Part shown: in pieces, positions 14,613 through 16,149 of the stretch
Layout of the letters: every line of letters starts with the position of its first letter
Position numbering within the stretch: the stretch's first letter is position 1
From: Oceanobacillus iheyensis HTE831
Lineage (GTDB): Bacteria > Bacillota > Bacilli > Bacillales > Amphibacillaceae
Reading direction: 5' to 3'
Length of the DNA: 64,000 nt
Assembly (NCBI RefSeq): GCF_000011245.1
Contig: NC_004193.1
Location: 1,590,501-1,654,500, forward strand
Program-made: the position numbers and the translations under genes
Notes under the pieces: model-generated
What the model was told of the DNA's origin: nothing
Seen by the model: only the letters and a program-made list of their open reading frames with translations
Database searches by the model: none

Positions 14613-15470
14613 ATGCTACGGTCAATGTATTCAGGTATTTCTGGAATGAAAAATTCACAAACGAAATTAGATGTTATTGGTAATAATATCGCTAACGTTA
14701 ATACAGTCGGTTACAAAAAATCAATGGTAAATTTCCAAGATATGATGAGTCAAACAACATCTGGTGCACAAGGCTCGACAGCCAATCGTGGAGGAGTAAA
14801 CGCTTCTCAAGTTGGTTTGGGTTCTACGATTGGTGCAATTTCTAACATTCATACGCAAGGGTTTCAACAAGTTACAAATAATCCATTGGATTTTGCTATA
14901 GAAGGTGATGGAATGTTTGTGTTGGTGGAAGGTGTAGATGCTGATGGAGAAGGAGGGACTAATATTGACTTAGATAATGTCAATACTGCTTATTCACGTG
15001 CTGGAAACTTCTACTTGGATGATAATGGAAACATCGTAAATTCTCAAGGGTTGTATTTAGTAGGATTTGTTGGTGATCCGGCACAGGAATCAACGATAAA
15101 TATTCCAGAGTCCGCACAAAGTTTCAGTGTACAATCCAATGGAACAGTCAACTATATTGATGCAAATGGAGACACACAAGTGGCTGGTCAAGTTGCATTA
15201 GCTTCATTCTCGAATCCATCTGGATTGCAAAAAGCAGGAAATAATTTATATTTAGATTCTCCTAATGCAGGACTAGCAGAACAATTATATACGCCAGAAT
15301 CTGATGACTTAGGTTCTTCTGTTGTAAGTGGTGCATTAGAAATGTCGAATGTGGACTTATCTGAAGAATTTACCGAGATGATTACAGCACAACGTTCTTT
15401 CCAAGCGAACACTCGTATCATTACTACTTCAGATGAAATTTTACAAGAGCTTGTGAACCTAAAACGATAA
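14613..15470 (+). CDS. flgE: Flagellar hook protein FlgE (formerly FlgG in Bacillus)
   Basis: Subunit of the hook. I chose ATG 14613 (285 aa), 8 nt after AAAGGGG; the ATG at 14607 is too close. The N-terminus MLRSMYSGISGMKNSQTKLD and the NNIANVNTVGYKK motif match the B. subtilis hook protein almost residue for residue. The C-terminus has the conserved SNVDLSEEFTEMITAQRSFQ and the ITTSDEILQELVNLKR helix. It is short for a hook protein, as in B. subtilis, hence the older FlgG label. A perfect hairpin follows before swrD. Confidence 0.93.
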   Translation: MLRSMYSGISGMKNSQTKLDVIGNNIANVNTVGYKKSMVNFQDMMSQTTSGAQGSTANRGGVNASQVGLGSTIGAISNIHTQGFQQVTNNPLDFAIEGDGMFVLVEGVDADGEGGTNIDLDNVNTAYSRAGNFYLDDNGNIVNSQGLYLVGFVGDPAQESTINIPESAQSFSVQSNGTVNYIDANGDTQVAGQVALASFSNPSGLQKAGNNLYLDSPNAGLAEQLYTPESDDLGSSVVSGALEMSNVDLSEEFTEMITAQRSFQANTRIITTSDEILQELVNLKR

Positions 15471-15518
15471 AAGGGAGGTAGGGGGTAACGACAAAGTCTC
15501 GTTACCCCCGCCAAACAA
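15471..15518 (+). promoter_or_regulatory. Shine-Dalgarno separated from the swrD start by a perfect 11-bp hairpin
   Basis: AAGGGAGG at 15471-15478 is the only Shine-Dalgarno-like sequence before swrD, yet lies 40 nt from the ATG at 15519. Between them GGGGGTAACGA (15481-15491) and TCGTTACCCCC (15499-15509) form a perfect 11-bp stem with a 7-nt loop. No T-run follows, so it is not a terminator. Nine nt (GCCAAACAA) separate the stem from the ATG. With the stem folded, the effective spacing is about 11 nt. Confidence 0.75.
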
Positions 15519-15737
15519 ATGATTCATTTGACAAGATTAAATAATGAGAAATTTGTTTTAAATGCTATTTATATTGAACAAATACAATCGTTGCCTGATA
15601 CGACAATTTCCTTAATAAACGGGAAAAAAATTGTTGTAAAGGATAATGCAAATGAAGTACTGCACCAAGTTACAAATTATTATCAAACGATTGGACTGCA
15701 ACAATTATCTTCTAAGGTAGGTGAAATAGATGAGTAA
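15519..15737 (+). CDS. swrD: FlbD-family flagellar protein SwrD (YlzI)
   Basis: Small (72 aa) FlbD-family protein, present in most Firmicute fla/che operons right after the hook gene. In B. subtilis SwrD raises motor torque and supports swarming. The family motif is seen at the N-terminus (MIHLTRLNNEKFVLNAIYIE), then LPDTTISLINGKKIVVKDNA and VTNYYQTIG. There is no Shine-Dalgarno within 15 nt of the ATG; the likely one is displaced by a hairpin (see 15471-15518). It overlaps the fliL start. Confidence 0.92.
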   Translation: MIHLTRLNNEKFVLNAIYIEQIQSLPDTTISLINGKKIVVKDNANEVLHQVTNYYQTIGLQQLSSKVGEIDE

Positions 15738-16149
15738 ACTTATGAAAACAATGATTACTTCATTAGTAATTTTACTTGCAGGTGCGATTACAGCATTAGT
15801 AATAGTTATAAATATTAGTACGCCTGAAAAAGTTAGTGGAGAGCAATCGATTGATGACATGGTGGAATATTCATTCGAGTCCCCTGAAGTTACAACGGAT
15901 TTAGAAGATGGTACCTTTGTTCGTGTACAATTCCAAATTATTACAGATAGTAGTGATGCTAAAAAGGAATTAGAAAAACGAGATTTCCAGTTGAAAAATA
16001 TCTTAATAAAGGAATTGGCAAAAAAGAATAAAGAAGATTTTCAAGCTGGATTAGGTGATATAGAAGAAGCTCTAAAAAATGAATTAAATAACTTAATGAC
16101 AGAAGGAAACGTTACTGAAGTATATACGATAAGTAAGATCCTTCAATAG
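15730..16149 (+). CDS. fliL: Flagellar basal body-associated protein FliL
   Basis: Single-pass membrane protein that rings the stator and supports torque. The protein has 139 aa with one N-terminal membrane helix (about residues 6-29, TMITSLVILLAGAITALVIVI). An extracellular SPFH-like domain follows (FVRVQFQIITD, then KNILIKELAKK). AGGTGAAATAG precedes the ATG, inside the swrD coding end. Confidence 0.93.
   Translation: MSKLMKTMITSLVILLAGAITALVIVINISTPEKVSGEQSIDDMVEYSFESPEVTTDLEDGTFVRVQFQIITDSSDAKKELEKRDFQLKNILIKELAKKNKEDFQAGLGDIEEALKNELNNLMTEGNVTEVYTISKILQ

What the first reader, a model, noticed from the sequence alone, without database searches (positions are those of the whole stretch)
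15471..15521. swrD Shine-Dalgarno appears to be brought to its start codon by a perfect hairpin
The only Shine-Dalgarno-like sequence (AAGGGAGG, 15471-15478) before swrD is 40 nt from its ATG. An exact 11-bp GC-rich hairpin (15481-15509) fills the gap, leaving 2 nt before and 9 nt after it, so folding gives an effective spacing of about 11 nt. No T-run follows, so it is not a terminator. Folded-out intervening hairpins that enable initiation are known in principle (T4 gene 38 is the textbook case). In a Firmicute flagellar operon this would be a structure-dependent start that could respond to temperature, ribosome traffic from flgE or a protein, and would set the level of the torque/swarming factor SwrD. 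The arrangement is seen directly; the mechanism is inference.
Basis: partly seen in the sequence, partly recalled or inferred. Interest (0 to 1): 0.72.

Follow-up and report, generated by a model that had tools for sequence, protein, structure and literature searches.

The report
Hairpin-bridged ribosome binding site, swrD
Before the flagellar motor gene swrD the ribosome's landing sequence lies too far from the start codon, and a conserved RNA hairpin between them appears to draw the two together, a trick known from phage T4 and seen here in many relatives of Bacillus.

Summary
In detail: AAGGGAGGT directly after the flgE stop, then an exact 11-bp hairpin, then the swrD ATG, with no nearer Shine-Dalgarno (SD).

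Of 253 distinct flgE-swrD junctions, 188 have a strong distal SD and no proximal SD, including 112 of 112 from the window's family; in 187 of these 188 the gap folds into a single helix. The linear SD-ATG gap runs from 23 to 362 nt, but the folded gap is 6-13 nt in 179 of 188. Stems differ in sequence yet pair: only 792 of 23562 half-stem chimeras fold as well as the native. In five junctions the hairpin carries roughly 100-330 extra nt and the folded gap stays 8-13 nt. Among 521 ORFs in 464 kb of this genome, swrD is the only one with this layout.

In 54 other junctions swrD has an ordinary SD, often with a hairpin upstream, so the hairpin probably predates its spacer role.

It works like phage T4 genes 25 and 38. 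That initiation needs the stem is inferred, not tested. My searches found no paper on it; the primary SwrD paper was not readable here.

The parts
15468..15470 (+). flgE stop codon TAA
15471..15479 (+). distal Shine-Dalgarno AAGGGAGGT, the only strong SD before swrD
   Evidence: anti-SD energy -11.9 kcal/mol, none proximal
15477..15479 (+). last three SD bases GGT, predicted to pair with GCC 15510-15512 in a lower stem
   Evidence: predicted fold; seen in part of the relatives
15481..15491 (+). 5' arm of the bridging hairpin
   Evidence: arms co-vary in relatives
15492..15498 (+). hairpin loop CAAAGTC
   Evidence: loop sequence and size vary freely in relatives
15499..15509 (+). 3' arm of the bridging hairpin
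15510..15518 (+). 9-nt spacer between hairpin and start codon
   Evidence: 3' flank 8.5 +/- 2.1 nt in 154 loci against 5.5 +/- 5.5 in shuffles
15519..15737 (+). swrD (FlbD/SwrD, PF06289), 72 aa
   Evidence: PF06289 E 6e-25 from residue 1

Best explanation
The flgE-swrD junction is a split ribosome binding site. The 30S subunit pairs with the SD just after the flgE stop codon while the hairpin stays folded and is looped out of the path, so that the SD and the swrD AUG lie about 10 nt apart instead of about 40. The stem enables initiation rather than blocking it. Shown by comparison: layout, pairing, constant folded distance, tolerance of long inserts. Inferred: that the ribosome uses this SD with the stem folded, and that SwrD dosage depends on it.
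For: 188 of 253 distinct junctions have a strong distal SD and no proximal one, with a single helix in the gap in 187 of the 188. Linear gap 23-362 nt (sd 35) against folded gap median 9, IQR 8-10, 179 of 188 in 6-13. Real folded gaps lie in 6-13 in 95% of 154 loci, shuffled ones in 45%; gap length follows hairpin span (r 0.93) and not the folded gap (r 0.12). Chimeric half-stems: mean -7.7 against native -16.4 kcal/mol, 792 of 23562 as stable. Genus alignment: 76.8% of cells paired against at most 54.1% when slid; covariation score 0.330 against 0.237 +/- 0.018, 0 of 500 shuffles as high. Five junctions with long inserts keep folded gaps of 8-13 nt. Keeping the hairpin saves a median 16.8 kcal/mol when SD, spacer and AUG are freed (180 loci). 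swrD is the only such ORF of 521 in 464 kb. The same arrangement was confirmed by experiment for T4 gene 25 (review passage PMC3014915).
Against: No experiment. The SD is not fully free: mean unpaired probability of SD bases 0.48 and of the AUG 0.55 over 154 loci, and in 100 of 154 at least two SD bases are expected to pair with the flank after the hairpin. Freeing the window's site costs 10.8 kcal/mol even with the hairpin kept, close to the -11.9 gained from SD pairing. A hairpin is also common where a normal SD follows it (33 of 46), so it may have another role as well. In the genus alignment two of the five measures do not stand out (pairs changed on both sides 8 against 7.7; further pair types 28 against 25.1), and RNAalifold found no consensus structure.
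Confidence: 0.85

Rival explanations
1. The hairpin is an mRNA-stability or processing element at the 3' side of flgE, and swrD is translated by coupling to flgE without real use of the distal SD. The constant folded distance is a by-product.
For: A hairpin also lies upstream of ordinary SDs (33 of 46 proximal-SD junctions with z below -2), so an older role is likely.
Against: It predicts neither a strong SD kept beyond the hairpin, nor loss of the proximal SD, nor a folded gap held near 9 nt through linear gaps of 23-362 nt. The 48-nt stop-to-start distance in the window is long for coupling, whose efficiency falls with distance (PMC12548453, passages).
Confidence: 0.08
2. The structure is a repressive switch: the lower stem hides the end of the SD and opens with temperature, a protein or flgE ribosomes.
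For: SD bases are partly paired with the flank after the hairpin; GCC or ACC directly follows the folded hairpin in 50 of 154 loci.
Against: The main stem does not include the SD core, and melting it would restore a gap of about 40 nt. The lower-stem pairs never change on both sides in the genus alignment, and the SD itself constrains one side.
Confidence: 0.05
3. The hairpin is a transcription terminator or attenuator within the operon.
For: A GC-rich hairpin between two operon genes.
Against: No terminator-like site in 15300-15800; in 180 loci none has 6 or more T in the 8 nt after the stem and 8 have 5.
Confidence: 0.01

Closest known systems
Phage T4 genes 25 and 38: split (accommodated) ribosome binding site
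   Same: SD too far from the AUG, brought to a working distance by a structure between them; gene 25 also lies at an intercistronic junction (26-25). Spacing 27 to 11 nt (gene 25) and 22 to 5 nt (gene 38), from passages of PMC3014915; here 39 to about 10 nt.
   Different: Phage genes, with the gene 25 form confined to close T-even phages per that review. Here a chromosomal flagellar gene across several bacterial families, with hairpins of widely varying size and long loop inserts.
E. coli thrS split ribosome binding site
   Same: A hairpin is accommodated by the ribosome without unfolding (PMC3936740, passages).
   Different: As I recall, the thrS hairpin lies upstream of the SD, between it and a single-stranded standby region, not between SD and AUG.
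Translational coupling of neighbouring genes
   Different: In the RNA-unfolding model the structure inhibits until ribosomes open it (PMC12548453, passages); here it appears to help.
RNA thermometers and SD-sequestering leaders (recalled)
   Same: Hairpin at the start of a gene, partial pairing of the SD end.
   Different: The main stem excludes the SD core and the start codon.

Membership tests
T4-type split (accommodated) ribosome binding site | Strong SD too far from the AUG for normal use, and no proximal SD | tested here: met
   -11.9 kcal/mol at 39 nt, none proximal
T4-type split (accommodated) ribosome binding site | Stable structure fills the gap | tested here: met
   -20.2 kcal/mol, single helix
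T4-type split (accommodated) ribosome binding site | Folding gives a working SD-AUG distance, conserved in relatives | tested here: met
   10 unpaired nt in the window; 179 of 188 loci in 6-13
T4-type split (accommodated) ribosome binding site | Breaking the stem lowers initiation; structure shown by probing | not testable with these tools
   needs reporters, toeprints, DMS or SHAPE
RNA thermometer or SD-sequestering switch | SD core buried in a structure that must melt for expression | tested here: inconclusive
   only the end of the SD is predicted paired in the window; mean SD unpaired probability 0.48 over 154 loci
Intrinsic terminator | T-run after the stem | tested here: not met

The most novel reading that the evidence does not exclude
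A hairpin-bridged hand-over: 30S subunits released at the flgE stop codon remain on the adjacent SD and reach the swrD AUG across the folded hairpin without scanning, so that the motor-power protein SwrD, and perhaps FliL whose gene overlaps swrD, is made in step with FlgE. In Bacillales relatives the working SD moved across an older intercistronic hairpin, which left its loop free to grow, even by dispersed repeats.
Probability: 0.3. Interest if true: 0.85.

Novelty: new member of a known kind. Interest (0 to 1): 0.72.

Why it matters
Gene finders and translation models use linear SD spacing and would call swrD SD-less. A widely conserved chromosomal case, probably including Bacillus subtilis (my inference from an unnamed 4.2-Mb single-contig genome, L250), gives a tractable system for how the 30S subunit tolerates structure between SD and AUG. 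Evolution supplies a ready series of stem lengths and inserts. It also bears on how SwrD, said to enhance motor power under swarming conditions (PMC9195833, passage), is dosed.

Tried and rejected
Terminator: rejected. Known Rfam element: no match at the curated thresholds (two sub-threshold hits) and none up to E 0.5 in the five long-loop loci. Mis-called start: rejected. Chance: rejected. A second split site in this genome: none among 521 predicted ORFs of at least 55 codons in 464 kb, of which 100 lacked a proximal SD; one search is the same scan of the window alone (77 ORFs).

RNAalifold on the gapped MAFFT alignment returned no structure. A tree of 111 FlgE C-termini was poorly resolved: split needs 7 changes on it and at least 2 by starred branches, so the number of origins is open. 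(first pass) called 165 of 231 split; it sometimes took a hairpin arm as the SD, so prefers the 5'-most strong SD. In one search I set L159 to split by hand (its weak proximal hit lies in the hairpin's 3' arm) and moved the start of L168 by hand (reason seen). In one search I set 16 starts from the search coordinates, because short gene stretches gave no or weak tblastn hits; for L171 only the first base of the start codon was held. The split class is defined by SD energies alone: L059 shows no helix with the SD chosen, though by eye it has one with an earlier SD. The folded gap lies outside 6-13 nt in 9 of 188.

Literature: searches showed no description of this structure at swrD in their listings. 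The primary SwrD paper (Hall et al. 2018) is not held, so it may mention it. Papers: passages only of PMC3014915, PMC3936740, PMC12548453 and PMC9195833; all others were listings.

Full report
OBSERVATION. The coordinates are exact: flgE stop 15468-15470, AAGGGAGGT 15471-15479, hairpin 15481-15509, ATG 15519. The gene is FlbD/SwrD (PF06289), between flgE and fliL-fliM (NCBIfam's best name for the FlgE protein is FlgG). The fold of the surrounding 121 nt is far more stable than shuffles (z -5.2, 0 of 200). The genome is one contig of 3,630,528 bp; from memory that is the size of Oceanobacillus iheyensis HTE831.

SAMPLING. Loci came from the genus (27 of 28 genomes with a match, all 27 used), a named collection (34 loci), the family (133 of 146 genomes; by my tally 102 of the 133 examined through), the class (110 of 151; by my tally 92 of the 110 examined, with two already held), the genus of G171 (44 of 44, 30 examined) and the phylum (95 of 149, 30 examined). 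The first 242 loci gave 231 distinct upstream sequences; with the genus of G171 there are 253. The phylum loci were scored apart.

TWO ARCHITECTURES. Of 253 junctions, 188 have a strong distal SD and nothing SD-like near the ATG, 54 have the SD in the ordinary place, and 11 have neither; 5 of the 11 are f21, where flgE and swrD overlap. The split form: f1 (the window's family) 112 of 112, f2 25 of 25, f3 2 of 2, f4 2 of 2, f5, f6 and f7 1 of 1 each, f9 7 of 8, f15 2 of 2, f24 3 of 3, f36 2 of 2, and 30 of 30 named loci (Allobacillus, Aquibacillus, Evansella, Salipaludibacillus, Bacillus pinisoli, Anoxybacillus, Fictibacillus, Pontibacillus, Pseudalkalibacillus, Halobacillus and Calidifontibacillus; the four named Oceanobacillus loci repeat sequences counted in f1). 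The proximal form: every junction of f8, f10, f12-f14, f17, f19, f23, f25, f27-f30, f33 and f38, 2 of 3 of f32 and 2 of 4 of f39. Of the 30 phylum loci, 27 have a proximal SD of -5.5 kcal/mol or better and none is above -4.

FOLDED DISTANCE. In the 188, the linear gap spans 23-362 nt (median 36, sd 35). Counting only bases outside the helix, it is median 9, IQR 8-10, with 179 of 188 in 6-13. 187 of 188 fold to a single helix, and 183 are below -8 kcal/mol. Dinucleotide-shuffled spacers scatter: 45% fall in 6-13, against 95% of 154 real loci. Hairpin span absorbs the variation in gap length (r 0.93); the folded gap does not follow it (r 0.12).

PAIRING. Five or six of the six standard pair types occur at each of the first eight stem positions (180 loci; pairs taken from folds). 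Half-stems of different loci do not fit each other: mean -7.7 against -16.4 kcal/mol, and 792 of 23562 chimeras are as stable as the native. In the genus alignment (27 rows) paired cells fall from 76.8% to at most 54.1% when slid, and the covariation score exceeds all 500 shuffles; but the number of pairs changed on both sides (8 against 7.7) and of further pair types (28 against 25.1) hardly do, and RNAalifold gave nothing on that gapped alignment. The last 42 nt of flgE in the same loci show no structure (2 of 164 with z below -2).

NATURAL INSERTIONS. In L035, L036, L128, L168 and L176 the hairpin is roughly 100-330 nt longer, with largely self-complementary inserts (L168 start corrected). 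The SD, the 3' arm and the 3' flank remain, and linear gaps of 168, 252, 264, 140 and 362 nt fold to 12, 13, 10, 10 and 8. The L176 insert has 57 matches in its own genome, and a 50-nt piece of the L128 stretch recurs among 26 matches in its genome, so at least these two carry dispersed repeats. Such inserts would strand a linear SD but not a folded one.

ENERGETICS AND CAVEAT. Freeing SD, spacer and AUG costs a median 7.9 kcal/mol with the hairpin kept and 25.0 with it melted (180 loci); for the window 10.8 and 31.0. Part of the first cost is a lower stem in which the last SD bases pair with the flank after the hairpin: 100 of 154 loci have at least two SD bases so paired on expectation, and the mean unpaired probability is 0.48 for the SD and 0.55 for the AUG. 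This may hold expression down, or be relieved by flgE ribosomes, since the SD starts a median 2 nt after the stop.

HISTORY. A hairpin lies upstream of ordinary SDs too: 33 of 46 testable proximal-SD junctions have z below -2 (5 of 51 too short), and hairpins are visible in many of the 30 phylum loci (by eye). The likely course is an old intercistronic hairpin, then loss of the proximal SD and use of one at the flgE stop. The number of origins is unresolved.

COMPARISON. T4 genes 38 and 25 work this way, and gene 25 was confirmed by reporters and DMS probing (PMC3014915, passages). Each feature testable here is met, so I file swrD as a member of that kind, with the functional test missing. Among 521 ORFs in 464 kb of this genome no second case met my criteria, so it is not a general feature of this genome.

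Noticed in passing
15730-15737: The fliL start (ATG 15730) overlaps the end of swrD (stop 15735-15737), so FliL translation may be coupled to swrD and hence to the hairpin site.
   Followed up: no
L176, L128 (also L035, L036, L168): Long self-complementary inserts sit in the hairpin loop; the L176 insert matches 57 places in its genome, and part of the L128 stretch recurs in its genome.
   Followed up: partly
L104, L110-L112, L116, L197, L238, L242: In proximal-SD relatives the upstream hairpin is G-rich then C-rich; in some (L110-L112, L116, L197, L238, L242) it has arms like GGAGGA and TCCTCC, so its 3' arm resembles an anti-SD close to the real SD and could form an alternative, repressive pairing.
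   Followed up: no
L039, L040, L042: Salipaludibacillus junctions carry a second, larger hairpin between the flgE stop and the distal SD.
   Followed up: no
L214, L224, L228, L234, L241: In family f21 flgE and swrD overlap by 1-4 nt, with no hairpin and no SD of note in the intergenic position.
   Followed up: no
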